31,662 bases of DNA from a virus, in IMG/VR virus record IMGVR_UViG_3300032954_000053, positions 1 to 31,662 of that record. One strand, written 5' to 3'. Shown here in pieces: positions 3,015-27,135 of the stretch (its first letter is position 1; every line of letters begins with the position of its first letter). The position numbers and the translations under genes were made by a program. The notes beneath the pieces are model-generated. The model had not been told where the DNA came from. It saw only the letters and a program-made list of their open reading frames with translations, and made no database searches.

Positions 3015-3861
3015 TGCCGAGTTCACGTACGACGACGTCTGCGGGTGGAGCGCTGATGAATTCAAGGCTCTGACCAGGGAAGGCCTTATCAGCGAGATTG
3101 CCCGGGCGACGCGAGTCGTTTGTGACGCCTGCCCGAAGGGACATCGCGAACGCGTTCGGTGGTGCGAGGATGGCGAGCGGGCATCGATTCCATGCCCGTC
3201 GGCGGGTAATGTAGCAGTCGATCCCGAGCGCCTGCGTCGTTGGCGAGCCAATGCTGACCGACTGTCGGCCCTCCTCTCCACGGCGATCACTCCTCCCGGT
3301 AAAGTTAATCCCCTGCCCGCCAGTCAGATTTGGTTTCTGGGGCGGCGACGGGTTGGGGGCTTTACTCCCTACTTCTTCTTCGCCGCGATGGGGCCTGATC
3401 AACTGTCCCCGGCTACGGATGCCGTGCAAGCGGCTTACGGACGGGTTAATTCCGTTGTGTTGGTTCCGTTCTCCCCGCCCAGTTCTCTACCGGACGCAAA
3501 GCTGCGGATCGTCGACGTTGCCAAAGTCGCCACGCTGGAGAATCGGCGCCTCAGCATCGATCTGTCCCTGATCGAAGCGCAATTTGGCGACGAAAAATCG
3601 CCGAAAAAGCTCGCGAAGCGGCCTCCGAAGTCTCTCAAGGACCATCGCATGTCGATTCTACGATCCTACATGCCGAGCGCCGGCGTACACGACATGAGTG
3701 GACTTGCAACCCACCTCCGGATTGATCGCAGCGTCATCTACGGGATTGTCCGTGGCGACCGAAGCAAATTCGGGGAAAGCACGCTGTCGGCAATGCTGAA
3801 TACGATCGGCTGTCCGCGAGCGAAATGGGATCATGTCCCCAATCCGGTCAGCCGCGCGTAA
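2968..3861 (+). CDS. Unknown protein with Cys cluster and C-terminal HTH, second gene of the pair
   Basis: This 297-residue protein starts at ATG 2968, preceded by GGAGGA about 10 bases upstream, inside the end of the previous gene. An early cluster, CDAC at 52-55 then Cys66 and Cys76 (in IPCP), resembles a small zinc-binding module. It is followed by DPERLRRW and a segment with QIWFLGRRR. The C-terminal 45 residues (from VHDMSGLATHLRIDRSVIYGIV) read as an XRE-like helix-turn-helix. The Cys module plus WxLGR-type segment reminds me of uncharacterised proteins in accessory regions of Proteobacteria; that is recollection, not a search result. A DNA-binding role is likely. It could be the lysogeny regulator of this phage, which otherwise lacks one, or the DNA- or RNA-sensing half of a two-gene cargo system. 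Confidence 0.8.
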   Translation: MESAWQLFLSQLASPDAEFTYDDVCGWSADEFKALTREGLISEIARATRVVCDACPKGHRERVRWCEDGERASIPCPSAGNVAVDPERLRRWRANADRLSALLSTAITPPGKVNPLPASQIWFLGRRRVGGFTPYFFFAAMGPDQLSPATDAVQAAYGRVNSVVLVPFSPPSSLPDAKLRIVDVAKVATLENRRLSIDLSLIEAQFGDEKSPKKLAKRPPKSLKDHRMSILRSYMPSAGVHDMSGLATHLRIDRSVIYGIVRGDRSKFGESTLSAMLNTIGCPRAKWDHVPNPVSRA

Positions 3862-3862
3862 T

Positions 3863-3947
3863 CTCCACGATTTTCTCCACAGTCCTCCACGTTCTCCACA
3901 TCAGGCTTGACTTATAAACGCTTCGCCGTGGAGATGAACACGTGGCA
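3863..3947. repeat. Repeat locus A: four CTCCAC copies plus an inverted copy
   Basis: CTCCAC occurs at 3863-3868, 3875-3880, 3885-3890 and 3894-3899 (steps of 12, 10 and 9 bases). The inverted form GTGGAG lies at 3928-3933, and a shorter GTGG follows at 3943-3946, in the start region of the next gene. The inverted copy overlaps the Shine-Dalgarno of the HTH gene that starts at 3942. A TATAAA at 3913-3918 lies between the two orientations and may be a promoter -10 box. The layout suggests an operator for autoregulation by the small HTH protein, or binding sites shared with the two other repeat loci. Confidence 0.6.
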
Positions 3948-4190
3948 GCTCTAACAAGCCAATCCGCACAGAGTGATAACGACCTGTTAACCGAGAGCCA
4001 AGTCCGCGAACAGGAATTGCCAATGTCGCTGGCTTGGTTTCGACGCATGCGAGTACAAGGGGGCGGCCCGCCGTTCATCCGCATCTCGAACCGTATCTTC
4101 TACCGTCGAGCAGATCTCCGGCGATGGATTGCCGAGCGGGCGACTCCCGACGCCGGGGGCATGGCGACTCGGGTCGCGGCGAGGACCTAA
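3942..4190 (+). CDS. Small HTH DNA-binding protein (AlpA/excisionase-like)
   Basis: This 82-residue protein contains the short winged-helix pattern LLTESQVREQELPMSLAWF...GGGPPFIRISNRIFYRRADLRRWI, typical of AlpA-like phage regulators and excisionase-family HTH proteins (about residues 16-66). The start is GTG at 3942 with GGAG at 3930-3933. It opens the rightward early operon, and the start site lies inside repeat locus A, which would suit an autoregulator. The AlpA family includes both transcription activators and excision factors. As another excisionase-type protein already sits beside the integrase, a regulatory job is more likely here. Confidence 0.85.
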   Translation: MAALTSQSAQSDNDLLTESQVREQELPMSLAWFRRMRVQGGGPPFIRISNRIFYRRADLRRWIAERATPDAGGMATRVAART

Positions 4191-4194
4191 ACCG

Positions 4195-4536
4195 ATGGCC
4201 ACTCCTGACCGATTCAGCCAACTTTCCGCTCCCCGCCAGGCATTGGTCCGCCTGTTCCAGTCGATCAACTTTGGTCAAGTCCTCGGGATAGTCGTTCAGA
4301 ACGGCGATCCGGTTTTCCATCCCGAACCAACCGTGCTGCTCGACGTGAAGCTGGACGCCGACGAGGGCATCCGGCAGGAGGCGGACCTGCCAGATTTCGC
4401 TCTCCGGGATGAAGTGCGCCGATTGATGTCGCGCCTAGAGGGAATCAAGCAGGGACGAATCGAACGGATCGAGGTTCGAGCCGGCATTCCACGGCGCGTC
4501 GTCATCGAGCGCCGCATGACGGAGGTGGCCCTATGA
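4195..4536 (+). CDS. Small conserved phage-associated protein, unknown function
   Basis: This 113-residue protein starts at ATG 4195, 4 bases after the previous stop, with GAGG about 10 bases upstream. The N-terminal half (SAPRQALVRLFQSINFGQVLGIVVQNGDPVF) is followed by an acidic, probably helical part and a C-terminal strand-like tail (IERIEVRAGIPRRVVIE). I recall similar small proteins beside sigma-like genes in prophages, annotated only as hypothetical. It overlaps the sigma-like gene by ATGA, so the two are translationally coupled and may work together, for example as a regulator of that factor; this is inference. Confidence 0.8.
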   Translation: MATPDRFSQLSAPRQALVRLFQSINFGQVLGIVVQNGDPVFHPEPTVLLDVKLDADEGIRQEADLPDFALRDEVRRLMSRLEGIKQGRIERIEVRAGIPRRVVIERRMTEVAL

Positions 4537-5114
4537 CGGTGATCGATCCGTACGTTGCCGAGCAAGCGGCCTGTCGGGCGAGCTTGTTGGTCGCCTCTGC
4601 CGGCTTCAGGCCCGACGATTGGGATGATTTGCACCAGGAAATCGTCCTCGACTGTTTGCGCCGTGCTCCGAAGTTCGACGCGGAGCGCGGCGACTGGCCG
4701 GGTTTTGTGCGGGGCGTGACGCGGAACTGCGCCGCGGTGCTAGTTGTGCGCCAGCGCCGGCGGGCGGCTGTGATTCTCGGTGAGGACTTAATGAGCAGTG
4801 AGGCCTCCGACGGCGATTCGCTGGACATACTCGACAAACGTCCGTGCTCGTGTGCAGTGGATGCCCTTGACCTCAGTCTTGACGTGCGCCGGGTGATCGA
4901 GAGCCTCCCAGCACAGCTCCAGTTGCTGGCGGTTCTGATTGGGCAGATGCCCATCCGTGACGTATGCCGGCGGCTCGGCAAATCCCGTTCTCGGGTCTAC
5001 CAGATGACCAGGCAGTTGAGAGACGCCTTTGTGCGTGCGGGATTTCAGCCCTGCCGTCCTCGAAAAAGCGGCGGTGCGGCGATGAAGCCCTTCTCGGTCG
5101 GAGTGAAACGATGA
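4533..5114 (+). CDS. Sigma-70-like (ECF-type) transcription factor
   Basis: This 193-residue protein has the two-domain plan of a small sigma factor. Residues 28-75 resemble region 2 (DDLHQEIVLDCLRR, then FVRGVTRNCAAVLVVRQRRR). Residues 114-160 resemble region 4 with its HTH (IESLPAQLQLLAVLIGQMPIRDVCRRLGKSRSRVYQMTRQL). It would be expected to bind RNA polymerase core or phage promoters. It starts at the ATGA overlap with the gene before, and its own stop overlaps the next gene by ATGA, so it is in the middle of the early operon. A phage-encoded factor of this kind could switch transcription to later genes. It may instead be a regulator that kept the fold but not full sigma activity. Confidence 0.8.
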   Translation: MTVIDPYVAEQAACRASLLVASAGFRPDDWDDLHQEIVLDCLRRAPKFDAERGDWPGFVRGVTRNCAAVLVVRQRRRAAVILGEDLMSSEASDGDSLDILDKRPCSCAVDALDLSLDVRRVIESLPAQLQLLAVLIGQMPIRDVCRRLGKSRSRVYQMTRQLRDAFVRAGFQPCRPRKSGGAAMKPFSVGVKR

Positions 5115-6679
5115 GCACAAAGAAAGCCGCTCGCTTTTTGCAGCACCACCTTCCCTGGGACCGTTTCTCCAAACCGGCACCGAGGTTGGTAATCACGCCG
5201 AAGCCTTCGATCGCCGCCAACAATCCCAACCTGGACGATCTTGCCTGCCAGATCTGGCGACACCTGAAGGATCTCAACAAGCCGCATTTTCTGTTTCGGC
5301 GTGATGGGAGGCTCTGCCGCGTCGAGGCGGATGATACGGGAGCCCCAGTGCCTGTCAGCGTGGACGTTCAGCGAATGCTGTTCCTGCTGGTCGAATTGTT
5401 TGATTGGACCGAGACAAAGACAACAAAGGACGCCGACGGAAACGCTGTCGAGGAGGACGTGAGTGTTCGCCCTCCGAAAGACTTGGCTCCCCATCTCGTA
5501 GCAGATCCTGATCCTCCAGTGCCAACTCTTCGCCGGATCGTGACGGCGCCGGTTTTCGCGGCCGGCGGTCAACTACTTAGGAAGCAGGGCGAATACGCCG
5601 ATGGCCTTCTCTATTTGCCGCCCAGATCGTTTCGTCTGGCCAGACTCCCGCGCTGCCCAAGCAAGGACGACATCCGGTCGGCCGTAAGCTTTATCGAGAG
5701 AAATCTGCTGGCGGATTTCAATTTTGTGGGCGAGGCGGAAAAGGCCAACTGCTTCGCTGCGCTTCTGACGCCGCTCGTGCGTGAGATGGTCAACGGACCG
5801 ACTCCGCTGTTCTGGGTCGATAAGTCCACCGGGGGCAGCGGCGGCACTCTCTTGTCCTGCGTCATCGCCGCGCCGCACCTCGGTGCGCCGCCTTCCGGCG
5901 TCACTGCACCGCGCGACGAGGCGGAGTGGAATCGCGTGATACTGTCCACTCTGCTGCGCTCGCCGAATGTGTTCTTCATCGACAACTGCAACGAGCACCT
6001 CTCTTCGGAGGCGCTCGCCCACGCGATCACCGCGTCACGATACGAAGGCAGAATCATAGGTTCCTCCAAGAACGAAGCCGCCGATGTGCGGTGCCTTTGG
6101 GTCATCAATGGTAACAACCTGCGATTCGGATGGGAGCTTGCGCGCCGAGTAATTAGAATCCGGATCGACGCCCATGTTGGCGGCCGGAAGTTCGTCCACA
6201 CCAACCTGCTGGCCTGGATATTCCAGAATCGCCCAGAGGTCATCTACAATCTCCTGATTCTTGTGCGGGCCTGGCAAGCTCGTGGGCAATCGGAGCCAGC
6301 CGCCGGCACACCGGATTTTGGCAGCTTCGATTCATGGCGCAGTGTGGTAGGCGGCATCCTGAACGCCTGCGGAATTACTGGCTTTCTGCTGAACCTGGAG
6401 GATGCCCGGAGAGAGGCAGACCAGGAGTCTGCAGTGATTCGCGCCTTTCTTGAGACGTGGCGGATGGAACGAGGGCCCGGGCCGGTCACCGCCACTGATT
6501 TGCTGGTGATCGGCCAGCGGTTCTTCGAATTGCCCAAGTCTGTTCACCCTGCGTCGATTCGGCTCGGCCTGATCCTCAGTAAGTACGAGAACCAGGTTCA
6601 CGATGGCTGGCGCATTCAGCGACTGCCGCCATCCAAAGGCAAGACGCAGTGGCAACTGCAGGCGGTGTCGCTGCCATGA
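5111..6679 (+). CDS. Helicase-type AAA/SF3-like replication protein with degenerate Walker A
   Basis: This 522-residue protein starts at ATG 5111 with CGGAG upstream. Its C-terminal half resembles the ATPase part of phage primase-helicases. The P-loop position reads WVDKSTGGSGGTLL (235-248), where the invariant Lys of GxxGxGK[TS] is replaced by Gly. A Walker B-like FFIDN lies at 288-292, a sensor-like NGNN at 333-336 and an arginine-rich RRVIRIRID at 345-353. The last 100 residues resemble a winged-helix domain (QVHDGWRIQRLPPS at the end). The N-terminal 200 residues have no motif I can name. It could be an ATPase with Lys238 taking over, or a non-hydrolysing loader or initiator for the RepA-like ATPase downstream. 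The operon context makes a replication role likely. Confidence 0.75.
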   Translation: MSTKKAARFLQHHLPWDRFSKPAPRLVITPKPSIAANNPNLDDLACQIWRHLKDLNKPHFLFRRDGRLCRVEADDTGAPVPVSVDVQRMLFLLVELFDWTETKTTKDADGNAVEEDVSVRPPKDLAPHLVADPDPPVPTLRRIVTAPVFAAGGQLLRKQGEYADGLLYLPPRSFRLARLPRCPSKDDIRSAVSFIERNLLADFNFVGEAEKANCFAALLTPLVREMVNGPTPLFWVDKSTGGSGGTLLSCVIAAPHLGAPPSGVTAPRDEAEWNRVILSTLLRSPNVFFIDNCNEHLSSEALAHAITASRYEGRIIGSSKNEAADVRCLWVINGNNLRFGWELARRVIRIRIDAHVGGRKFVHTNLLAWIFQNRPEVIYNLLILVRAWQARGQSEPAAGTPDFGSFDSWRSVVGGILNACGITGFLLNLEDARREADQESAVIRAFLETWRMERGPGPVTATDLLVIGQRFFELPKSVHPASIRLGLILSKYENQVHDGWRIQRLPPSKGKTQWQLQAVSLP

Positions 6680-6861
6680 CCCTTCACACCCTAAAACACA
6701 CCCTCAAGTGCAAGCGCTTGAAAACACGATCTAAGAAGGATGTGAAGGATGTTGTGGATGTTGCACTGGTATTCGGCCTCAGGAGATTGAGCATTTGGGG
6801 TTCAGTGAGCGTGAGGGCTTACTGCTTGGAAAACACCCTTCAGACCCTTCACATCCATCTG
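6679..6861. repeat. Repeat locus B: 9-bp repeats ACCCTTCAC in both orientations
   Basis: The 328-base gap between the helicase-type gene and the primase gene holds no convincing gene but a set of 9-bp repeats. ACCCTTCAC is at 6679-6687 and 6844-6852, and ACCCTTCAG at 6835-6843 directly abuts the second copy. On the other strand, GATGTGAAG, GATGTTGTG and GATGTTGCA run head to tail at 6739-6765. Arms GGATGTGAAGG (6738-6748) and CCTTCACATCC (6846-6856) are perfect 11-bp inverted repeats, 97 bases apart. A palindrome CAAGCGCTTG lies at 6711-6720. Repeats of this type between replication genes suggest iterons or an origin; this is inference. Confidence 0.65.
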
Positions 6862-7007
6862 GCTGGTTGTTGTCATGGGCTTGGCGACAAGGGTGTTCCT
6901 GCTACGACTCCCCTATCGGTCCCTGCTGGCCCGGCGCTTCTTGCGGCGCTCCGATTTGGCTCCTCGGGCAGCGCCGCCCGTGCACTCGCAGGATCCTCGG
7001 AGTCTCG

Positions 7008-7733
7008 ATGACGACCCAATTCAACGAGATTGTCTCTGCGTTGGAGGGCCGGCGCTCCGGATCGAGTTGGATGGCCAGATGTCCGGTGCACGAAGATCGC
7101 AACCCTTCCTTGAGTATTCGCTCCGGGCGCGATGGGCAGGTCCTGGTACACTGCCATGCCGGCTGTGATCAGGCCGACGTGATCGCCGCGCTGCGGGATC
7201 GGGGTCTGTGGCGAGATAGCAGCAAATCCGAGTCGGTAATCACGGCGACGTACGACTACACGGACGAAGAAGGGTACCTCCTTTATCAGGTAGTGCGCAA
7301 AGAGCCTAAGCACTTTCTCCAGCGACATCCTGATGGCGCAGGTGGCTGGATCTGGAGGAAGGCTGATCGGCAGGTGCTTTATCGGCTGCCCGAGGTGCTG
7401 GAGTCACCCATCGTGTTCGTGGTCGAAGGCGAGAAGGACGCTGAGCGCTTGCGCGACAACGGCTTCGTCGCCACCACGAACTCGGGCGGGGCATCGGCCG
7501 CTTGGCTGCCGGACTATACTGACGCGCTTCGCGGTCGCGAGGTCATCCTGATCCCGGACAATGATCCGCCTGGGCGGCAGCGCGTTCTCAAGATCGCACG
7601 AGCATTACTCGGAAACGTGGCCAAGCTCAGCATCCTTGAGCTTGACGGGGCAAAAGACGTCTCGGAGTGGTTCGACCAGGGGCACTCCGAGCTCGAACTC
7701 ATTCATCAGATCGAGGCCGAGCATGCGCTATGA
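7008..7733 (+). CDS. DNA primase-type protein with CHC2 zinc finger and Toprim domain
   Basis: This 241-residue protein joins a CHC2-like zinc finger to a Toprim catalytic domain and would make RNA primers for phage replication. Zinc ligands are Cys25 and His28 (CPVH), Cys49 and Cys53 (CHAGC). The Toprim motifs are Glu140 in FVVEGEKD, the glycine-rich TTNSGGAS (156-163), and Asp184/Asp186 in ILIPDND. The start ATG at 7008 has CGGAG about 6 bases upstream; an upstream extension in the same frame reads into the repeat-filled gap and looks non-coding. The order zinc finger-Toprim without a helicase fits a phage in which the ATPase is on a separate gene, here the next one, overlapping by 11 bases. 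Confidence 0.9.
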   Translation: MTTQFNEIVSALEGRRSGSSWMARCPVHEDRNPSLSIRSGRDGQVLVHCHAGCDQADVIAALRDRGLWRDSSKSESVITATYDYTDEEGYLLYQVVRKEPKHFLQRHPDGAGGWIWRKADRQVLYRLPEVLESPIVFVVEGEKDAERLRDNGFVATTNSGGASAAWLPDYTDALRGREVILIPDNDPPGRQRVLKIARALLGNVAKLSILELDGAKDVSEWFDQGHSELELIHQIEAEHAL

Positions 7734-8817
7734 CGTCACCACCGCCGATGACGTAGTGGTCACCGAGCGGAAGTTCAAGGCCGCCGGCAAATTGGAGGCT
7801 GTGTCGGGCAGGGATCGTCCCGCAGCAGCTCTGCCTCGGGTTCACAGCGCGGCCGAACTCTACAACGGCGCGATCCAAGAGTTGCGGCCATTAGTCGACG
7901 GCCTCCTGTACGACGGCCTCACGATGCTGGTCGCCAAACCCAAAGACGGCAAATCCTGGCTCGCATTGCAGTTGTCAGTCGCGATTGCCGGTGGAAGGGC
8001 GATTGACGGAATCGAACCACGCGAAACAGGGCTCGTTCTCTTCGTGGCACTGGAGGAGCCGGCCGCGCGGACTGCAAACCGGCTACGGAAGCTCGCTCCA
8101 CCAGGACCGTGGCTCGATGGCCTGACTTTCGTCTACGAGTTGCTCCCGCTGATGGGCGGAGGCGCCGAACAACTCGCCGAGCTGATTCGCCAGCACACTC
8201 CCCGATTCGTTGTCGTTGACACGCTCACTGCCCTGGTCAGGGCGGCCAAGCGCGAGACCGACGTATTCCGCGGCCAGTACGAGGAGATAAACCGTCTCCG
8301 GCAGATTTGTGCGGACGCCAAAATCTGCTGCCTGCTGATTCACCACACGCGCAAGGGAGTCTCTGACGGGCCGGTTGAAGCCGTTGCCGGGACAGGGGGA
8401 ATAGCCGCGGCCGTGGACGCCATCTGGCACCTTCGGCGCAGACCAGGGAACGACGCCACGCTCGATGTCCTGGGGCGGGAAGTGGAAGAGCGCAGTTTCG
8501 CGTTGCACTTCGAACGCGAGACGCCATTCGGCTGGCGATTCGTCGGCGACGGTCAGGAGGCGGTCCTGAGCGCTGAGCGCGAGGAGATCCTGGAACTCCT
8601 GCGGCATGAAGCGCCCCTTACCCCGGCGAAGATCGCCTTGATGCTGAGAAAGAACGCCAACACGATTCGAAGTCTGGTTCACCGCCTCCACAAGGACGGG
8701 CACGTGAGCCGCAACAGCAAAGGCGGCTACTCTCTCAGCAGCAGTGGTAGATCTGTAGATCACTCACTCAACCGCGTAAACAGTGTAAACGCGAGTGAAA
8801 GAACGAATGAGGAATGA
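7723..8817 (+). CDS. RepA/DnaB-like hexameric helicase-type ATPase with C-terminal winged helix
   Basis: This 364-residue protein has a RecA-fold ATPase of the RepA/DnaB-like group. Walker A is KPKDGKS (72-78), Walker B is RFVVVDTLTAL (161-171), the IHHTRKG histidine motif lies at 206-212, and VAGTGGIAAAVDAIWHL (221-237) matches the motif before the sensor strand. Residues 290-345 (ILELLRHEAPLTPAKIALMLRKNANTIRSLVHRL) form a winged helix. The gene starts at ATG 7723, inside the primase gene, so the two are coupled and likely act together at the fork. The last 15 codons encode NRVNSVNAS-type repeats because the gene end runs into repeat locus C, so the exact C-terminus may be shaped by the DNA repeats rather than by protein function. 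Confidence 0.88.
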   Translation: MRYDVTTADDVVVTERKFKAAGKLEAVSGRDRPAAALPRVHSAAELYNGAIQELRPLVDGLLYDGLTMLVAKPKDGKSWLALQLSVAIAGGRAIDGIEPRETGLVLFVALEEPAARTANRLRKLAPPGPWLDGLTFVYELLPLMGGGAEQLAELIRQHTPRFVVVDTLTALVRAAKRETDVFRGQYEEINRLRQICADAKICCLLIHHTRKGVSDGPVEAVAGTGGIAAAVDAIWHLRRRPGNDATLDVLGREVEERSFALHFERETPFGWRFVGDGQEAVLSAEREEILELLRHEAPLTPAKIALMLRKNANTIRSLVHRLHKDGHVSRNSKGGYSLSSSGRSVDHSLNRVNSVNASERTNEE

Positions 8818-8908
8818 GACGGTTACGGCGTTGTTTACGACTACGCACACGGATGGCGTTGCGACCGTTTACGCCGTTTACGGCGTTGCGGGTGTTTATA
8901 CCGTTGTG
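8776..8908. repeat. Repeat locus C: 9-bp repeats around GTTTAC in both orientations
   Basis: Five exact GTTTAC motifs occur within about 110 bases. The inverted form GTAAAC is at 8776-8781 and 8785-8790, spaced 9 bases, and the forward form at 8833-8838, 8867-8872 and 8876-8881, the last two again spaced 9. From 8864 to 8908 the DNA can be read as five successive 9-base units (ACCGTTTAC, GCCGTTTAC, GGCGTTGCG, GGTGTTTAT, ACCGTTGTG). The locus starts inside the 3' end of the ATPase gene and extends into the following gap. It looks like an iteron cluster or a multi-site operator. The unit differs from that of locus B (ACCCTTCAC) at only two of nine bases. Confidence 0.65.
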
Positions 8909-9113
8909 GGCCGTGGGGCATGCTGGACTGTCGGCTGGAAATGACCGCATTCAGGGTGCACATCTGAGCGGACCGCTGAGTATTGGGTAGTAGAAGCCAG
9001 TTCGATCGCGAGGCGCCCGGCGCACCGATCGGAGGGCTTTCGGTCCGTCCAACGATGGACTGAGCGCCGGGACGCTCTCGAATCCATTCCCGCAGCTTTT
9101 CCTAATACCACAC
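8909..9113. other. Non-coding stretch after the replication genes
   Basis: I see no supportable gene between repeat locus C and the small gene at 9114. The possible reverse-strand frame here (8896-9132) crosses the repeats and has no recognisable protein features. No clear terminator hairpin with a T run is visible. Confidence 0.4.
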
Positions 9114-9470
9114 GTGTGTCCAAAGACGACAAATTCGTTGATCTCTGTCTATCAAGGTGACGGCAGTTTGTACGCCATCGTCAGCGAACAGAGGTTCGCG
9201 CGACTTCAATCCAGCGGACTCGTGGCTCGCGTGGTACGCAGCCGGAAGAAACAAATCAAGCGAGCGATACTATTCATCCGGTCCGGCGAGCCAGGACCGA
9301 CTTCAGCTACCGAAGTTGCGGGCACGCGGTACAGCTTCAAAGAGCGGCTTGAGCACGGTCGGGCGTGGGAACTGAAACATCTCGGCGCAGATCGCGATGG
9401 CAAGACCTATGCTTCGCCGGAAGTTCGCTCCGCATTTCTCCAAGTTGTTGCTGATTGTACGGTCAAATGA
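9114..9470 (+). CDS. Small hypothetical protein
   Basis: A frame of 118 codons starts at GTG 9114. The protein is basic in its first half (VVRSRKKQIKRAILFIR) and has a GTRYSFKERLEHGRAWELKHLG segment, but I recognise no family. The third codon positions are less strongly G/C-rich than in the replication genes, and there is no good Shine-Dalgarno sequence, so the start may be wrong. A TGA stop at 9468-9470 overlaps an ATG at 9467, which opens a 42-codon basic frame. It is probably a real accessory gene but the support is moderate. Confidence 0.5.
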   Translation: MCPKTTNSLISVYQGDGSLYAIVSEQRFARLQSSGLVARVVRSRKKQIKRAILFIRSGEPGPTSATEVAGTRYSFKERLEHGRAWELKHLGADRDGKTYASPEVRSAFLQVVADCTVK

Positions 9471-9666: not shown

Positions 9667-10362
9667 CTAGAAGGCTTTCGGATAGACGGTCAGAACGCGG
9701 TCTGCGAGTCGGCAGCCGTCACGAATTCCTAGGGCTGCTGTCCACGGATATCGCAACCACGTCTCGTGAGCCGTGGGCTTATAGCTGCCATCATTGACGA
9801 AATTGATGAGAACAAGAAACGCCGGTACTCCGCATAAAACATGGAGAAAGTACAGAAACGCCAGCCGATTGGCCAATTGATACGCTCCGTTCATCCAGTC
9901 TGCAGGCTTCAGACCCATGTAGGCTTGCACCTCAGCCAGGCGGGCTCGGATCCGGTCGATGCTCAGCGGACTCTTTGCACCGCAACTGGAGCGGGTTTCT
10001 CCGGGATGAGCCTTGGCCTCAATCAGTAGCACAGCCGGTCCATTGGTGGAACGCAAAAGTGCGAGGCCGTCCCATTGCGGGCCGTTATCCGGCCAGAAGT
10101 TCTTTAGCGCTGCAAGGTGTTCCGGCAGATTGAGTGCCGTCGGGCCGAGGAAGTCATCGCGGTATTCGAAGTAATTCTGGTCGGCCAAAGGCGATAGCCA
10201 CGATACTTCAGCGCCCTGAAGGGCTGTAAGAATTGGGCTGCTGCGGATAATGAGTTCGCCCAGGTCCCGAGGCCGCTGCTCGACGTAGCGCTGCAAGCAA
10301 TAGCGGCTGCCCTTGCTTGCCGGTCCCTCACGCACAGCACGATGTCGCACGTCTCGAATCAT
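9667..10362 (-). CDS. PD-(D/E)XK nuclease-like protein, reverse-strand cargo
   Basis: This 231-residue protein carries the signature of the PD-(D/E)XK nuclease fold: Asp98 in QWDGLALL, then Glu115 and Lys117 in VLLIEAKAH. Residues 150-230 (YQLANRLAFLYFLH, PAFLVLINFVND, LGI, VLTVYP) fit a family of stand-alone bacterial proteins I remember as hypothetical, with the same EAKAH core. The start at ATG 10362 is the most likely; the frame is open further upstream but across the divergent gene. It points away from the ParB-methyltransferase and their starts overlap by about 20 bases. It could be a restriction-like partner of that methyltransferase or an unrelated anti-foreign-DNA protein. Nuclease activity is not proven by sequence. 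Confidence 0.8.
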   Translation of the reverse strand: MIRDVRHRAVREGPASKGSRYCLQRYVEQRPRDLGELIIRSSPILTALQGAEVSWLSPLADQNYFEYRDDFLGPTALNLPEHLAALKNFWPDNGPQWDGLALLRSTNGPAVLLIEAKAHPGETRSSCGAKSPLSIDRIRARLAEVQAYMGLKPADWMNGAYQLANRLAFLYFLHVLCGVPAFLVLINFVNDGSYKPTAHETWLRYPWTAALGIRDGCRLADRVLTVYPKAF

Positions 10363-11715
10363 AACCTGAACGCCCCTACGGTGACGCCCGCGATGGCGCG
10401 ACGCATCGAGATCTGGCCCGTGGACCGCCTGATTCCGTACGTCAAGAACCCCAGGACGCACAGCGAGGAGCAGGTGGCGCAAATCGCGGCATCGATTATC
10501 GAATTCGGATTCACTGCGCCGATATTGGTGGCTTCCGACTCGGGCATACTGGCCGGGCATGGTCGTCTGCTCGCCGCGCGCAAGCTGGGCCTCACAGAAG
10601 TTCCAGTGGTCCCGTTGGACCACCTGAGCGAAACCCAGCGGCGCGCGTACATCATCGCCGACAATCAGTTGGCATTGAACGCCGGCTGGGATGAAGAACT
10701 ATTGCGCATCGAGTTGCAGGCACTCCAGGAGAGCGACTTTAACTTGGACCTGATTGGTTTCAGCGACAAGGAACTGGATGAACTCCTGACTGATCCGGAA
10801 GACGAAGAGAGGGCCAACGCCGCTCCACCGTTGCCGGAAAACGCTGTGTCCCGGCCTGGCGACCTGTGGATCTGCGGTGAGCGCCGCAACCAACATCGGG
10901 TCCTTTGCACCGACGCAACCAGCCCCGAGGGGGTCGCGAGGCTACTTGGCGAACGTCGGCCGCACTTGATGGTGACTGACCCTCCATACGGAATCGAGCT
11001 CGATTCCGAATGGCGTGACCGCGCCGGGCTGAACGGACTTGGACCCGCCGAGGCGAGCTACATGAAACATCGCACGGAGGGCCATACCGAAACGACCATC
11101 TCCGGGGACACGCGGGCCGACTGGTCGGAAGCCTTCGAGCTCGTACCAAGCCTGCAAATCGCCTACGTCTGGCACGCGTCCATCTTCACGCGCGAAGTTC
11201 TGAACGGCCTGCTTCGCATAGGGTTCCTCTATCCGCAGCAAATCATCTGGAACAAAGGCAGGACGGTCCTGACACGGACTCACTACTGGTATCAGCATGA
11301 GCCCTGCTGGTACGTCCGGAAGAAGAACGCGCCGTGGTTCGGAAAGGCCGGAGAGAATTCGACGATCTGGGACTCGCCATCACCGAAGTTCATCATGGGC
11401 GGCTCGGGCGAAGAGAAATACGACCACCCCACGCAGAAGCCTGTTGAGCTGATGCGGCGGCCGATCCTGAATCATACCAAACGAGGGGAGTCGGTTTACG
11501 AGCCGTTCCTGGGCAGCGGCACCACACTCGCCGCGGCCGAACTGACCGAGCGGGTCTGCTACGGATTGGAACTCGATCCGAAGTACGTGGACGTGATCGT
11601 CCAACGCTGGCAAACGCTCTCCGGCAAGCGGGCCACGTTGGAGGGCGACGGCCGGACGTTCGAAGCGATCGCGGAGGAACGCCGGAAGGAACACGCGCAG
11701 GGAGAAAAGCGATGA
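10342..11715 (+). CDS. ParB-domain / DNA methyltransferase fusion
   Basis: This is a 457-residue two-domain protein. Residues 20-115 form a ParB/Spo0J N-terminal-like domain (IPYVKNPRTHSEEQVAQIAASI, then LAGHGRLLAARKLG). Residues 170-440 form an amino-methyltransferase of the N6-adenine/N4-cytosine type, with catalytic DPPY at 213-216, HPTQKP at 362-367 and the AdoMet-binding FLGSGTT at 389-395. Such fusions are common in phages and modify phage DNA, which can protect it from host restriction. The start is unclear: ATG 10342 overlaps the divergent gene, while ATG 10393 would remove 17 residues and leave the domain intact; neither has a good ribosome site. It overlaps the following small gene by ATGA. 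Confidence 0.93.
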   Translation: MSHVSNHNLNAPTVTPAMARRIEIWPVDRLIPYVKNPRTHSEEQVAQIAASIIEFGFTAPILVASDSGILAGHGRLLAARKLGLTEVPVVPLDHLSETQRRAYIIADNQLALNAGWDEELLRIELQALQESDFNLDLIGFSDKELDELLTDPEDEERANAAPPLPENAVSRPGDLWICGERRNQHRVLCTDATSPEGVARLLGERRPHLMVTDPPYGIELDSEWRDRAGLNGLGPAEASYMKHRTEGHTETTISGDTRADWSEAFELVPSLQIAYVWHASIFTREVLNGLLRIGFLYPQQIIWNKGRTVLTRTHYWYQHEPCWYVRKKNAPWFGKAGENSTIWDSPSPKFIMGGSGEEKYDHPTQKPVELMRRPILNHTKRGESVYEPFLGSGTTLAAAELTERVCYGLELDPKYVDVIVQRWQTLSGKRATLEGDGRTFEAIAEERRKEHAQGEKR

Positions 11716-12542: not shown

Positions 12543-13031
12543 ATGGCGATCCTGAGCCAGCGGGCCTACGCGCGGCATCGGGGAGTCGCCCTATCGGCGG
12601 TGCAGAAGGCGATTGAAACGGACCGTATCTCCACTCAACCAGACGGACGGATCGATTCGGAGCAGGCCGATGTCGCGTGGGAGCGGAACACCTCGCGCCA
12701 TGCGCCACCAATCGCCAAGCGCGGCCAGGACGAGGATGATGTGTCGATCGTCGGCGCTTCGCAGTACACCAAGGCGCGCGCCGTGCGCGAGTACTACCAG
12801 GCGAAGCTCGCCCGGATCGAGTACGAAGAACGTGTCGCCAAGCTTGTCGCAAAGGACGAGATGAAGATTGCCGCGTTCAACAAGTTCCGGCAGTTCCGCG
12901 ACCACATGCTGAACATCCCGGATCGGGTGGCGGCGATGGTGGCGGCTCAAACCGAAGCAGCGAAGTGCTACGAAGTCCTGGCGACCGAGATCCGCAGGGC
13001 ACTGAATGAATTTGCAGATTCCAACGGCTGA
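12543..13031 (+). CDS. Terminase small subunit-like packaging protein
   Basis: This 162-residue protein starts at ATG 12543, with GAGAGG upstream. Residues 5-45 (QRAYARHRGVALSAVQKAIETDRIS) form an HTH of the Nu1 type that would recognise the packaging site. After a charged linker, residues 75-115 (AVREYYQAKLARIEYEERVAKLV) are a long helix as in Nu1-like subunits that assemble into rings and contact the large subunit. The gene overlaps the large terminase by 26 bases, the usual order, and together they would cut and package concatemeric DNA. A longer upstream start at 12462 is possible but overlaps the divergent promoter area. Confidence 0.85.
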   Translation: MAILSQRAYARHRGVALSAVQKAIETDRISTQPDGRIDSEQADVAWERNTSRHAPPIAKRGQDEDDVSIVGASQYTKARAVREYYQAKLARIEYEERVAKLVAKDEMKIAAFNKFRQFRDHMLNIPDRVAAMVAAQTEAAKCYEVLATEIRRALNEFADSNG

Positions 13032-14922
13032 AGAGATCTACTCAGCAGCGGCGGCAGCCGGCGCGCGGCCGGACCCATTGCTGACGATCTCGCAGTGGGC
13101 TGACAAGTACCGCTCGCTATCGCAGCGGGCCTCGGCTGAGTCAGGCCCATGGCGCACTGATCGCACACCGTATCTGCGCGAAATCATGGACTGCCTTTCG
13201 CCGTCCTCGCCTGTGGAGCGCACGGTCTTCATGAAAGGTGCGCAGATCGGCGGCACCGAGTGCGGCAACAACTGGATCGGCTATGTGATCCACCAGGCGC
13301 CCGGCCCCATGATGGCGATCCAGCCCACCGTGGAGATGGCCAAGCGCAACTCGAAGCAGCGCATCGATCCGCTGATCGAGGAGTCGGAGGTGCTGCGGGC
13401 ACTGGTGAGCGATCCGCGATCGCGCGACTCGGGAAACACGGTCCTCTCGAAAGAGTTTCCCGGCGGCGTGCTGGTGATGACCGGCGCGAACTCCGCTGTC
13501 GGCCTCCGCTCCATGGCGGCGCGGTATCTGTTTCTGGACGAAGTGGATGGGTATCCCGGCGATGTGGAGGGCGAGGGCGATCCGGTGAACCTGGCGACCG
13601 CCCGCACCAGGACGTTCGCGCGCCGGAAGATCTTCATGTGCTCGACGCCGAAGATCACGGGCATGTCCCGGATCGAGGCGGCGTATGAAGAAAGCGACAA
13701 GCGGTTGTACTGGGTGCCGTGCCCAGTCTGCCGCGAGTTCCAGACGCTGAAGTTCGCGCAGTTGCGCTGGCCGAAGGGGGAGACAGAGAAGGTCGTTTAC
13801 GTTTGCGAGCACTGCGGGCAAGAGATTCACAACCACCAGAAGCAATCGATGCTGGCGTGCGGCGAGTGGCGGCGCAGCGCTGTTGGCGATGGCAAGACGG
13901 CTGGCTTCCACCTTTCCAGCCTCTACTCGCCGGTCGGTTGGTTCGCGTGGTCGGACGCAGCCAAGCAGTTCGAACAGGCGCAAAAGAATCCGGCGCTGCT
14001 TCAGGTCTTCGTCAACACCGTGCTCGGCGAGACGTGGACGTTGCTTGGCGAGGCACCAGAGTGGCAGAAGCTGTATGACCGGCGCGAGTCCTACAAGGTC
14101 GGAACGGTGCCGCGCGGCGGGTTGTTTCTTACGGCTGGCGCCGACGTGCAGAAGGACCGCATCGAGGTGGAGATTACCTCCTGGGGCCGGGGCAAAGAGT
14201 CGTGGTCGGTCGATTATCGCGTGTTCGAAGGCGACACATCCCGGCCACAGATATGGGAGAAGCTCACCGGCCTGCTGAACGAATCATTCCCTACCGAATC
14301 CGGTCTGGAATTGCCGATCCTCCAGCTCGCCGTCGATTCGGGCTTCGCAGCGATCGAGGTGTACCAGTGGGCGCGGCGGCAGGGCGGGCGCGTGCTGGTG
14401 ATCAAAGGCGATTCGCGGACGCCCGCGATCATTGGGCCGGCGTCTCCTGTTGAGGTTGGGCCGGCGGGCGCGAAGCTGAAGCGCGGCGTTCGGGTGTGGC
14501 CGGTTAACTCCGGCATGGCCAAGGAAGAGTTGTACCGGTGGCTGCGCCAGGATCGCCCGACCGATGAGGAAGTAGCGAAGGGCATTCCTTTCCCGCCGGG
14601 ATACTGCCACCTCCCGCGCTACAGCGAAGAGTACTTCAAGCAGATCACCGCTGAGCAGTTGGTGACGAAGATCGTCAAGGGATATCGCCGGCACGAATGG
14701 CAGAAGATGCGTGAACGCAATGAGTCGCTCGATTGCCGCGTCTATGCGCGCGCGGCGGCTGGACGGGTCGGCATCGACCGCTTCCAGGAGAAGCACTGGG
14801 CTGACCTCGAGCGTCGCGTGGGCGCGCCTCCGGCGAAAGAAGTGAAACAGCCGCAGCAACCGCCGCGCACGGATGGTAAGCAAGCCGCGCGGAACCGCGT
14901 GCGATTCAGGATGGAGGTTTGA
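13006..14922 (+). CDS. Terminase large subunit (GpA family)
   Basis: This 638-residue motor and nuclease of DNA packaging belongs to the phage lambda GpA family. The family's ATP-binding loop reads FMKGAQIGGTE (75-85) and Walker B YLFLDEVDG (174-182). A zinc-ribbon pair follows (Cys239/Cys242 and Cys267/Cys270), also typical of GpA. The nuclease domain begins near AGADVQKDRIEVEI with Asp380 as a likely metal ligand. ATG at 13006 lies within the small-subunit gene. The length agrees with the family. In lambda the next gene is W; here a reverse-strand cargo gene sits between the two. Confidence 0.96.
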   Translation: MNLQIPTAEEIYSAAAAAGARPDPLLTISQWADKYRSLSQRASAESGPWRTDRTPYLREIMDCLSPSSPVERTVFMKGAQIGGTECGNNWIGYVIHQAPGPMMAIQPTVEMAKRNSKQRIDPLIEESEVLRALVSDPRSRDSGNTVLSKEFPGGVLVMTGANSAVGLRSMAARYLFLDEVDGYPGDVEGEGDPVNLATARTRTFARRKIFMCSTPKITGMSRIEAAYEESDKRLYWVPCPVCREFQTLKFAQLRWPKGETEKVVYVCEHCGQEIHNHQKQSMLACGEWRRSAVGDGKTAGFHLSSLYSPVGWFAWSDAAKQFEQAQKNPALLQVFVNTVLGETWTLLGEAPEWQKLYDRRESYKVGTVPRGGLFLTAGADVQKDRIEVEITSWGRGKESWSVDYRVFEGDTSRPQIWEKLTGLLNESFPTESGLELPILQLAVDSGFAAIEVYQWARRQGGRVLVIKGDSRTPAIIGPASPVEVGPAGAKLKRGVRVWPVNSGMAKEELYRWLRQDRPTDEEVAKGIPFPPGYCHLPRYSEEYFKQITAEQLVTKIVKGYRRHEWQKMRERNESLDCRVYARAAAGRVGIDRFQEKHWADLERRVGAPPAKEVKQPQQPPRTDGKQAARNRVRFRMEV

Positions 14923-24733: not shown

Positions 24734-25126
24734 GTGCTGCGCCAAACCGAGTTATGTGGGCGTGAAGAGGATTGCCCCGACCGGGTGTTCCGTTGCCGGA
24801 AATGCGGCTATTCGGCGCAAACGGAGTTGGACGGCTGCTTCGCGTGCGGTGCGGATTGGAAGGCCATCGACGTAAGCCACGGACCGGGATGTCCGAAGAA
24901 TCGGCTCGATGAAGCGATGGACTCGCCGAACGGCGCGCTCGTGCGGCGATGCTTCCGAATCCTGAATGCGAAGAGCATTGGAGTAACGATAACGCTAGCT
25001 GATATCACTGAAGAGGAATACCGTGTACTTGAGCTGATCGAAACTGAGCGACAGAATCAATTCAGGAATGGGGAGCGGTACACCTGGACTCATCGGGAGA
25101 ACACTTTGATCAAAGACGACAGTTGA
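24734..25126 (+). CDS. Zinc-ribbon ORF downstream of the chaperone, possible T-like extension
   Basis: This 130-residue frame has a good zinc ribbon: Cys20/Cys23 of FRCRKCGYS and Cys34/Cys37 of GCFACGADW, with an extra CPD and GPGCPKN around. A plain start would be GTG 24734, without a good ribosome site. But this frame is also open upstream past the stop of the preceding gene, and the extra stretch (reading GDWPEEPGVRFLIRSVL) has the codon bias of a coding region. This suggests it is made as a -1 frameshift fusion to the chaperone, as lambda GT. The last 37 bases overlap the reverse-strand cargo gene. Confidence 0.65.
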   Translation: MLRQTELCGREEDCPDRVFRCRKCGYSAQTELDGCFACGADWKAIDVSHGPGCPKNRLDEAMDSPNGALVRRCFRILNAKSIGVTITLADITEEEYRVLELIETERQNQFRNGERYTWTHRENTLIKDDS

Positions 25127-27135
25127 TCTAAAAGGGGGGCCCAGTTGTTGCCCGCCATCGCTGTCCCGGCGGCGTTCCCGAGCGCGCCTACCAAAAGGTC
25201 CCTGACGACCGTCAAACTCTTGAAAATCAATGAGGACCTCGGTCGCGCCTCTTGAATTTCACCTCGGAGCTCCTGAATCGCTTCCGCAAGCTTCTCTCCC
25301 TGATCTTGTGAAATCAAGAGTTCCCCTTGCCTACTCACGACCTTTTCTAGTAGAACAGGGAGTGCATCAACTTCATTAACGGTCTGATGGATATCAACCG
25401 AAGCGGTCCCGCTTGCTATTACAACTCCGGTCGCGGCTCCGGCAATCTGCACCCGATGGCCCACGGCAGCTAGAATCCGAGGTACCACCTCGTTCAGTAA
25501 CAATTGCTTCTCGATTTCCAGACGCTCGGCTCTTCTAGATTCGCTCCGCAGGGCCATCTGAGCAGCATGAACAGACTTGGCAGTCTCGCTTACATGCTCA
25601 AATGTGGTCCTATTCGCCTCCTCTATGCTGATTAACACTTTTGTTCCCCCAGGTGATTCGGTGATTGAACTCAGGCGGAGGCCGCAACCCGGATGCAGGC
25701 TAGCGAGATGATGCAGCAATGCAGGTAGCGTGCTCAGTTCAAACATCGTGATGCCCCCGCGATAAAGAAGTTCGATCTTGGGTTGGGCCGAATGCAACCG
25801 CTCAAATTCGCCTGCGTCATATCGAGTCGCTTTTGCGGCATCCTTGTCCCAAAATGCTCTTTCACAGATGACACTCTGTATTGACCAATCTGCGCGCTGG
25901 GTTTCCCAAAGCCGAATATCAGTCAGCGTGGCTCCATCGAGATTGGAATCGATCAGGTTCGCCACACGCAAGTCTGCTCCTGTAAGATCAGCCCCTCTGA
26001 AGTCCTGGCAACGAAAGTCACGCCCGCTGAGGTCTTGTCCGCTGAGGTTCGCCTTGCTGAGGCACGCACCTTTAAAATTGGCTCCCACGACGTTCGCCCT
26101 GGTAAAGTTCACGGCGTTGAGGTTGGCGCCGCTGAAATTTACATTTCTAAGGTCCGCTTCACTCAGATCCACTCCACTGAGATCTCGTCCACTGAGGTCT
26201 TGTCCGGTGAGGTTCGCTCCGCTGAGGAGTGCGCCTCTGAAACTCGTCTTAGCAAGAGCTGTCCCGCTAAGATCAATCCGCGAGAGGTCTGCCGCACCAA
26301 GGTTCGCGTCGTTTAGGTTCGCCTCCCTCAGACAGAGATCGGTGAGGTCGCATCCGTGCAGGACCGCACCGGTGAGATTCGTCTTTGTCATAATGGCGCC
26401 ACTAAGGTTGGTAGCAGTCAGGTCCGTGTTGCTAAGATTTGCGGCGTTGAGAACAGCTCTGGTTAGGTTTGTCCCAGTAAGCATCGCTCCACTCAGATTT
26501 GCGCTGCTCAGATCCTTTCCGCTCAAATCGAGCCCACGAAGATCCAGACAAGCGAGATCGGCTTCACGTAGGTCACCTTTCGCTAGATCTACTTGTGTTA
26601 GATCTCTCCCCCGGAAGTCGACAAGACGCAGACGTGCTCCCTCGAGGTTCGCACCGCTGATATCAATTCCCTTTAGATTGTGTCCACCGAAGTCCACTCG
26701 AGTGAGATTGGCGCCACTCAGATTACCCTCAAAGAAACTGGTTCCTGTAAAGTCAACGCCGGTTAGATCTGCGTTGCGAAAATTGGCTCGAAGGAGATAT
26801 GCGCCGGTTGCGTACTCCCCTACAACCACAGGCCCTGTGAAGTTCGTACCTACCAGGTTCGCGCCTTCAAAGTTTGCTCCCTCGAGGTTCGATTCATCGA
26901 AATCCGCTCCACGCAGATCCGCTCGGCTGAAATCGAAGCCGCGGAGCTCTAGGTCTCGTAGGTTCAGTCCCTTAAGGTCTCGCCCTCTTAGATCCATCGC
27001 ACGCAGGAGGTTACTAAGGCGCTCTTTGACACCGTTTCCATATGCATTGGGGTGTTCCAGCCTCCAGGTGTTCCAGGCGCTCGCACCTTCATTGAAGGCC
27101 AGTAGCAGCTCATTGCTCTCACGATCACGTAGCAT
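25090..27135 (-). CDS. Large pentapeptide-repeat protein with coiled-coil and hydrophobic C-terminus, cargo
   Basis: This 681-residue protein has a long run of A(D/N)LXX-type pentapeptides (about 47-410, some 70 repeats) forming a right-handed beta-helix. The C-terminal 250 residues are different: a globular part (MFELSTLPALLHHLASL), a long charged helix near 525-560, a small beta part (VQIAGAATGVVIASGTASVDI), another coiled coil (EKLAEAIQELRGEIQEA) and a Gly/Ala-rich hydrophobic segment (TVVRDLLVGALGNAAGTAMAG) near the end. Pentapeptide helices can mimic DNA or bind partners; a C-terminal hydrophobic helix suggests membrane association. The gene is inserted backwards between tail genes and is less G/C-rich than its neighbours, so it is probably foreign cargo. 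Confidence 0.9.
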   Translation of the reverse strand: MLRDRESNELLLAFNEGASAWNTWRLEHPNAYGNGVKERLSNLLRAMDLRGRDLKGLNLRDLELRGFDFSRADLRGADFDESNLEGANFEGANLVGTNFTGPVVVGEYATGAYLLRANFRNADLTGVDFTGTSFFEGNLSGANLTRVDFGGHNLKGIDISGANLEGARLRLVDFRGRDLTQVDLAKGDLREADLACLDLRGLDLSGKDLSSANLSGAMLTGTNLTRAVLNAANLSNTDLTATNLSGAIMTKTNLTGAVLHGCDLTDLCLREANLNDANLGAADLSRIDLSGTALAKTSFRGALLSGANLTGQDLSGRDLSGVDLSEADLRNVNFSGANLNAVNFTRANVVGANFKGACLSKANLSGQDLSGRDFRCQDFRGADLTGADLRVANLIDSNLDGATLTDIRLWETQRADWSIQSVICERAFWDKDAAKATRYDAGEFERLHSAQPKIELLYRGGITMFELSTLPALLHHLASLHPGCGLRLSSITESPGGTKVLISIEEANRTTFEHVSETAKSVHAAQMALRSESRRAERLEIEKQLLLNEVVPRILAAVGHRVQIAGAATGVVIASGTASVDIHQTVNEVDALPVLLEKVVSRQGELLISQDQGEKLAEAIQELRGEIQEARPRSSLIFKSLTVVRDLLVGALGNAAGTAMAGNNWAPLLDQLSSLIKVFSR
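25930..26995 (-). repeat. Degenerate 15-bp coding repeats of the pentapeptide array
   Basis: The DNA shows a 15-base period: on the reverse strand each unit is close to GC(A/C)AACCT(C/A)A(G/A)(C/T)GG, seen here as repeated GAGGTT or GAGATT with CGCTGAGG. The forward strand therefore also has long open frames that are not genes. Variation between units is high, so recent unequal exchange is not obvious. Confidence 0.7.

What the first reader, a model, noticed from the sequence alone, without database searches (positions are those of the whole stretch)
3863..8908. Three repeat loci sharing one short motif type across the early/replication block
Seen directly: three gaps in the early block carry repeats of closely related type, each present in both orientations. 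Locus A (3863-3947) has CTCCAC x4 and an inverted GTGGAG. Locus B (6679-6861) has 9-bp units ACCCTTCAC and inverted GATGTGAAG units. Locus C (8776-8908) has 9-bp units ACCGTTTAC and inverted GTAAAC. Aligned, the units share T-[CT]-[CT]-A-C at the end, and B and C differ at only two of nine bases. Each locus has its own homogenised version, as if arrays evolve in concert. Known: iterons for phage initiators (lambda O, P4 alpha) are short repeats next to replication genes. Inference: these are binding sites of one family, for an initiator or for the early HTH protein, spread over the operon. I know of no described case with three diverged loci like this.
Basis: partly seen in the sequence, partly recalled or inferred. 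Interest (0 to 1): 0.7.

Follow-up and report, generated by a model that had tools for sequence, protein, structure and literature searches.

The report
Helicase genes with private origin repeats
This soil-bacterium virus carries, right behind each of two different DNA-unwinding genes, a small two-way array of 9-letter repeats that looks like that gene's own replication start site, and the same layout with a different repeat each time recurs behind many unrelated viral helicase genes.

Summary
The repeats are real: a blind scan of the 31.7-kb window returns exactly three bidirectional short-repeat arrays, at loci A, B and C (0.12 expected per shuffled window). B and C are one kind of thing. 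Each starts at the stop codon of a replicative ATPase gene with a predicted C-terminal winged helix (B: an SF3/D5-type protein; C: a RecA-fold AAA_25 helicase) and consists of ~9-bp units on both sides of a spacer. The layout is general: 31 of 90 AAA_25 genes have it at the 3' end against 5 of 1063 control gene ends (p=6e-32), and it also follows PrimPol-D5, VapE and phrog_10537 genes, including one archaeal virus. Two known origin regions, P4 crr and phage Sfi21 ori, have the same layout and place. Best reading: private initiator sites (origins), one per helicase, two in this phage. Units turn over completely even when the ATPase stays ~78% identical. Locus A differs: its unit and spacing are fixed in two relatives, so it is probably an operator. 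Binding and replication are untested. Known kind of origin, new variants and breadth.

The parts
3862..3933 (+). Locus A: four CTCCAC units (3863, 3875, 3885, 3894) and one inverted GTGGAG (3928), filling the gap between gA and the HTH_17 gene
   Evidence: same unit and near-same spacing at the same place in L027 and L257
2968..3861 (+). gA: Zn-finger-like + HTH protein gene just 5' of locus A
   Evidence: weak HTH_31 match at its C-terminus; relatives at 57% (L027) and 45% (L257) identity
3942..4190 (+). HTH_17 (excisionase-like) gene 3' of locus A
   Evidence: PF12728 8.8e-6, phrog_66 5e-7
5111..6679 (+). hel: phrog_10537-type SF3/D5-like replication protein, Walker A degenerate (GGSGGT)
   Evidence: phrog_10537 3e-70; Foldseek hits AsfvPrimPol, SaPI5 primase-helicase 7ola, Cch 5dgk, PriRep1 7pds
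6494..6664 (+). C-terminal winged helix of hel (residues 462-518)
   Evidence: AlphaFold2 H462-471, H478-491, E500-508, E511-518; block pLDDT 74-91
6678..6861 (+). Locus B: bidirectional 9-bp array (GGATGT at 6738, 6747, 6756; CCTTCA at 6681, 6837, 6846; inverted ACATCC at 6851), starting at the hel stop codon
   Evidence: relatives of hel carry their own arrays at the same place
7008..7733 (+). TOPRIM/CHC2 primase-like gene, partner of the AAA_25 gene
   Evidence: PF01807 4e-6, phrog_6088 3e-34; 55% identical partner in L318
7723..8817 (+). AAA_25 RecA-fold helicase gene
   Evidence: PF13481 3.9e-27; Foldseek Taq DnaB 2q6t 3e-11, DNA helicase RepA 1nlf 1.3e-9
8551..8736 (+). C-terminal winged helix of the AAA_25 protein (residues 277-338)
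   Evidence: AlphaFold2 H277-295, H301-308, H312-324, E328-330, E336-338; block pLDDT 85-96
8776..8908 (+). Locus C: bidirectional 9-bp array (GTAAAC at 8776, 8785; GTTTAC at 8833, 8867, 8876), overlapping the disordered C-terminus and stop codon of the AAA_25 gene
   Evidence: L262/L318 (48% identical protein) has TGTAAC units at the same place

Best explanation
Loci B and C are clusters of binding sites (iterons) for the winged-helix domain at the C-terminus of the replication protein encoded immediately upstream, and most likely serve as its origin of replication. The protein would bind the two inward-facing half-arrays, assemble on the spacer between them, melt it and load itself as a helicase. 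This phage carries two such cassettes with different specificities: hel+B, and primase+AAA_25+C. Locus A is a separate, conserved site cluster, probably an operator for an early regulator. Shown here: the repeats, their placement, their recurrence behind several helicase families, and the predicted winged helices. Inferred: binding, melting and origin function.
For: Placement and enrichment: bidirectional arrays at 31/90 AAA_25 3' ends against 5/1063 control gene ends and 0/81 regions upstream of the same genes; lag-9 mean score 4.41 against 0.45. Terminase-selected relatives (869 kb, chosen without regard to replication genes) gave 7 arrays, 6 of them 3' of a helicase-type gene and 1 a palindromic coding artefact. 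Different ATPase families have the same layout. Known origin regions used as positive controls: P4 crr, where the record annotates type 1 repeats 9 and 18 bp apart in both orientations right after the alpha gene, and Sfi21 ori, annotated as origin right after a putative primase gene. RepA of an IncQ plasmid, with a separate repC gene, has no array. Winged helices are predicted at both C-termini. Spacers are richer in A+T than flanks in 33 of 44. Literature: SaPI Rep binds downstream iterons with its C-terminal domain, and SCCmec Cch2 binds repeats just 3' of its gene (PMC7581432); PICI origins are two iteron sets flanking an AT-rich region 3' of rep (PMC6092414).
Against: No binding or replication data. 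Most members of a large hel clade have no strict array (3/78 hel loci in all), and two thirds of AAA_25 genes miss the strict exact-match test. Unit similarity does not correlate with winged-helix identity across all pairs (Mantel P 0.82); only close relatives tend to share units. AT enrichment at C itself is slight (0.46 against 0.42). GC skew gives no origin signal.
Confidence: 0.75

Rival explanations
1. The arrays are operators: the replication proteins repress or time their own operon by binding them, with no origin function.
For: Locus A sits between two HTH genes and looks like an operator cluster. The arrays lie between genes transcribed in the same direction.
Against: B and C follow the 3' end of the helicase gene; the start regions of AAA_25 genes have none (0/81). 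No sigma-70-like promoter above chance in 3700-9150. P4 crr and Sfi21 ori have the same layout and are annotated as replication elements.
Confidence: 0.12
2. The arrays act as one large stem-loop (cruciform DNA or RNA), as proposed for the pRN1 origin downstream of orf904, or as transcription terminators.
For: Inverted half-arrays are necessarily complementary over 20-30 nt. The pRN1 and BIP-1 stem-loops lie at the same place relative to their replication genes (PMC4234260).
Against: Linkers are no more alike in the hairpin register than out of it (0.62 against 0.70). L113 and L122 keep the core CTAACA while left-array linkers change. Many arrays have three or more blocks or unequal arms. No terminator-like site is reported at B or C.
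Confidence: 0.08
3. One reading: A, B and C are diverged sites of one DNA-binding protein acting across the early operon.
For: Units share a loose theme; B and C copies agree at 7 of 9 bases.
Against: Unit cores cluster only at their own locus. The B and C cassettes occur separately in other genomes. A keeps its unit in relatives with other replication arrays. The theme is shared by unrelated phages.
Confidence: 0.05

Closest known systems
Phage P4 alpha protein with crr/ori1 (type I iterons)
   Same: Helicase-primase with a C-terminal winged helix (PMC4234260); 8-bp units at ~9-bp steps in both orientations directly 3' of the gene
   Different: P4 uses one protein and one unit at two loci; here two different proteins each have a private unit. 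AAA_25 is RecA-fold, not SF3.
PICI/SaPI replicon (pri-rep-ori)
   Same: Two iteron sets around a spacer, immediately 3' of the initiator-helicase gene, each element with its own unit (PMC6092414, PMC7581432); hel folds like the SaPI5 primase-helicase
   Different: The window has its own terminase and other phage genes, so it is not a satellite; it has two such modules and a degenerate Walker A in hel.
Streptococcus phage Sfi21 origin (302-bp phage inhibitory sequence)
   Same: Annotated origin directly 3' of a putative primase gene; AGTTAC units 8 bp apart facing across an AT-rich spacer
   Different: Unrelated host and unit; single module.
RSF1010/IncQ RepA-RepC system
   Same: AAA_25 protein has the RepA fold (1nlf)
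   Different: IncQ RepA has a separate RepC initiator and no array at its gene end; here the DNA-binding domain is fused to the helicase.
Crenarchaeal plasmid pRN1 orf904 downstream stem-loop origin
   Same: Origin just 3' of a PrimPol-SF3-winged-helix gene; fast sequence turnover at a fixed position (PMC4234260)
   Different: There a stem-loop without iterons; here repeated units without a hairpin register.

Membership tests
P4 crr / PICI-type origin (initiator gene followed by two iteron sets) | array immediately 3' of the initiator-helicase gene | tested here: met
   B starts at the hel stop, C overlaps the AAA_25 stop; general in the survey
P4 crr / PICI-type origin (initiator gene followed by two iteron sets) | two oppositely oriented sets of short units about 9 bp apart flanking a spacer | tested here: met
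P4 crr / PICI-type origin (initiator gene followed by two iteron sets) | AT-rich spacer | tested here: inconclusive
   33/44 spacers richer than flanks overall, but C only 0.46 against 0.42
P4 crr / PICI-type origin (initiator gene followed by two iteron sets) | initiator with C-terminal DNA-binding winged helix | tested here: met
   AlphaFold2 models of both proteins; prediction only
P4 crr / PICI-type origin (initiator gene followed by two iteron sets) | initiator binds the units and replication depends on them | not testable with these tools
   needs binding and replication assays
PICI (phage satellite) | no full structural gene set of its own | tested here: not met
   the window has a large-terminase gene at 13006-14922 conserved in many viral contigs and further long ORFs; not filed as a PICI
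IncQ RepA-RepC | separate RepC initiator | tested here: not met
   no RepC-like match among the ten early proteins scanned
pRN1-type stem-loop origin | arms complementary along their whole length in one register | tested here: not met
   matched-register linker identity 0.62 against 0.70 unmatched over the arrays surveyed
Intrinsic terminator | GC hairpin followed by a T run | tested here: not met
   no site reported at B or C; 3 found in the region against 4.4 expected

The most novel reading that the evidence does not exclude
One phage genome holds two self-sufficient origins, each recognised only by a different class of helicase (a degenerate SF3 protein and a RecA-fold protein) encoded beside it. 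More widely, winged helix plus 3' array forms a specificity cassette attached to unrelated replicative ATPases in phages, integrative elements and an archaeal virus, and its recognition code changes far faster than the enzyme, which would set replicon compatibility groups.
Probability: 0.35. Interest if true: 0.75.

Novelty: new variant of a known kind. Interest (0 to 1): 0.58.

Why it matters
[quoted passage not shown] The data here show the same layout behind unrelated helicases in many phages and integrative elements. If the arrays are origins, the start of replication of many uncultured viruses can be read from sequence: look just behind the helicase gene. Each winged helix comes paired with its own likely target, which gives natural data for learning a DNA-recognition code. 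The window phage, with two helicases and two private arrays, raises the testable question of why a phage would keep two initiation systems.

Tried and rejected
Single-protein viral scans with AAA_25, hel and gA found no relatives; relatives came through the terminase and alignments. Two scans for closer AAA_25 relatives gave few loci. A Mantel test of unit against winged-helix identity was negative, so co-variation is claimed only as suggestive case studies. Hairpin and terminator readings were tested and disfavoured. GC skew was uninformative. Rfam gave nothing above a curated threshold. Literature searches for AAA_25 with iterons found no paper, but most subscription papers are not held. The 12-bp and 15-bp periodic stretches at 12.1 kb and 26.0 kb are coding and were set aside.

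Full report
OBSERVATION. At each, 6-mer pair counts exceed all 2000 dinucleotide shuffles, and the lag-9 signal of B and C is the strongest in the window. A blind detector of bidirectional short-repeat arrays run over the whole window returns exactly A (3863-3933), B (6738-6856) and C (8776-8881) and nothing else; 60 shuffled windows contain 7 arrays in all, or 0.12 per window. A is not 9-bp periodic (spacings 12, 10, 9). Each unit core clusters only at its own locus.

SURROUNDINGS. The window is an IMG/VR-type virus record. Relatives of its early genes lie in Terriglobia and Bryobacteraceae genomes, so the host is probably an acidobacterium (inference). Gene order: gA (Zn-finger-like + HTH), locus A, HTH_17, two small genes (one sigma-like), hel, locus B, TOPRIM primase, AAA_25 ATPase, locus C. 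B starts at the hel stop codon; C overlaps the disordered tail and stop codon of the AAA_25 gene. AlphaFold2 predicts a winged helix at the C-terminus of both: hel residues 462-518 and AAA_25 residues 277-338. The hel model matches SF3/D5 proteins including the SaPI5 primase-helicase and SCCmec Cch. The AAA_25 model matches DnaB, RAD51-type proteins and DNA helicase RepA.

THE PATTERN IS GENERAL. Eighty viral AAA_25 loci and others (90 in all) were compared with the 3' ends of 1063 other ORFs in the same loci. The lag-9 repeat score averages 4.41 against 0.45, with a smaller peak at lag 8. Bidirectional arrays with at least two exact units each way occur at 31/90 AAA_25 ends, 5/1063 control ends and 0/81 upstream regions (odds ratio 111, p=6e-32). 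Across the arrays examined, unit spacing is 9 bp in 105 of 164 steps, the median spacer is 44 bp, and the spacer is richer in A+T than its flanks in 33 of 44.

It is not tied to one ATPase family. Relatives chosen by the terminase alone (869 kb) gave seven strict arrays. Six lie 3' of a helicase-type gene: PrimPol-D5 (L014, L088), VapE-like and D5_N (both in L091, so a second two-module phage) and phrog_10537 hel (L053, L057). The seventh is a palindromic coding artefact. L016 (DUF3854-D5), L257, L292, L293, L303 and L304 (hel in acidobacterial genomes) and the Methanosarcinales virus vir525 (L002, TACCCG units in both orientations, some pairs 8-10 bp apart) show the same kind of arrangement with other units. 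Exceptions: the large hel clade mostly lacks strict arrays (3/78 hel loci in all). In L027 the hel protein appears to end inside the winged helix and no array follows.

CALIBRATION ON KNOWN ORIGIN REGIONS. The detector was applied to P4 and Sfi21. In P4, crr lies directly 3' of the alpha gene with annotated type 1 repeats at +4314, +4323, -4366, -4384. In Sfi21 the annotated origin lies directly 3' of a putative primase gene, with AGTTAC units 8 bp apart facing across an AT-rich spacer. RepA of the IncQ plasmid pRAS3.1, which has a separate repC gene, has no array.

MECHANISM. The simplest reading is that the winged helix of each replication protein binds the array just behind its own gene, assembles on the spacer and loads as a helicase. 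Precedents: SaPI Rep and SCCmec Cch2 bind repeats directly downstream of their genes with their C-terminal domains (PMC7581432), and PICI origins are two iteron sets around an AT-rich region (PMC6092414). A pure hairpin is disfavoured: linkers are no more alike in the hairpin register than outside it (0.62 against 0.70). In L113 and L122 (nearly identical ATPase domains) the left array lies in coding sequence and its linkers differ, changing the encoded tail from NIANIAN to NTPNTAN, while the core CTAACA is kept.

UNIT TURNOVER. Units change fast. In L115, L116 and L137 the ATPase domain is similar (78% identity for L115/L116), the winged helix has diverged more (52%), and the arrays are CGTCAC, CCTAAG and ACTCTC-type at the same place. 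L111 and L169 are similar (0.69 and 0.38 identity; different units). Over all 594 pairs there is no correlation of unit with winged-helix identity (Mantel P 0.82), so co-evolution is suggestive only. A loose theme, G..AC or GT..C, occurs in 18 of 39 cores against 2.6 expected. This can explain why B and C resemble each other without one protein binding both.

LOCUS A. In L027 and L257, gA relatives at 57% and 45% identity are followed by the same cluster with the same unit and near-same spacing, while the replication genes and arrays downstream differ. A is therefore a conserved site cluster of the early regulator region, most likely an operator (inference, moderate confidence), not a third origin-type array.

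MODULARITY. The primase+AAA_25+array cassette occurs without hel in L318, and hel+array occurs without AAA_25 in L257 and L319. The window phage carries both. Whether both are active, or one is a relic (hel has a degenerate Walker A, as do many of its relatives), is open.

VERDICT. Observation confirmed; interpretation partly supported. The origin architecture is known (P4 crr, Sfi21, PICI). New here, as far as the held literature shows, are its extension to RecA-fold AAA_25 helicases and phrog_10537 proteins, its breadth across unrelated helicase families, and two private modules in one phage.

Noticed in passing
window 9062-9092, upstream of ORF 9114-9470: Possible conserved H-type pseudoknot: stem GAGCG/CGCTC, loop CCGGGA, downstream TCCCG. 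Found upstream of 20 of 22 homologues of ORF9114; stem letters vary together (CGAGGTG/CACCTCG, CGTGGTG/CACCACG, CGAGAG/CTCTCG) while CGGGA and TCCC stay. No Rfam family matched.
   Followed up: partly
window 5822-5851 (hel residues ~238-247): Walker A of hel is degenerate (STGGSGGT, lysine missing); the consensus in 19 relatives is GTGAT, whereas L053 has GTGKT and L066/L257 GSGKG.
   Followed up: partly
L113 and L122, C-terminus of the AAA_25 gene: Array units inside coding sequence force tripeptide repeats (NIANIAN, NTPNTAN) in the protein tail; such tails in phage helicases may reflect DNA sites rather than protein function.
   Followed up: partly
L091 16-1314 and 13254-14855: A second contig with two helicase+array modules (VapE-like and D5_N), each with its own unit.
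   Followed up: partly
window 25090-27135 (-): 681-aa protein with pentapeptide-type repeats by eye; explains the 15-bp periodicity near 26 kb.
   Followed up: no
window 10342-11715: 457-aa ORF that by eye joins a ParB-like N-terminus to a DNA methyltransferase; many terminase relatives encode several partial homologues. Domain assignment not tested.
   Followed up: no
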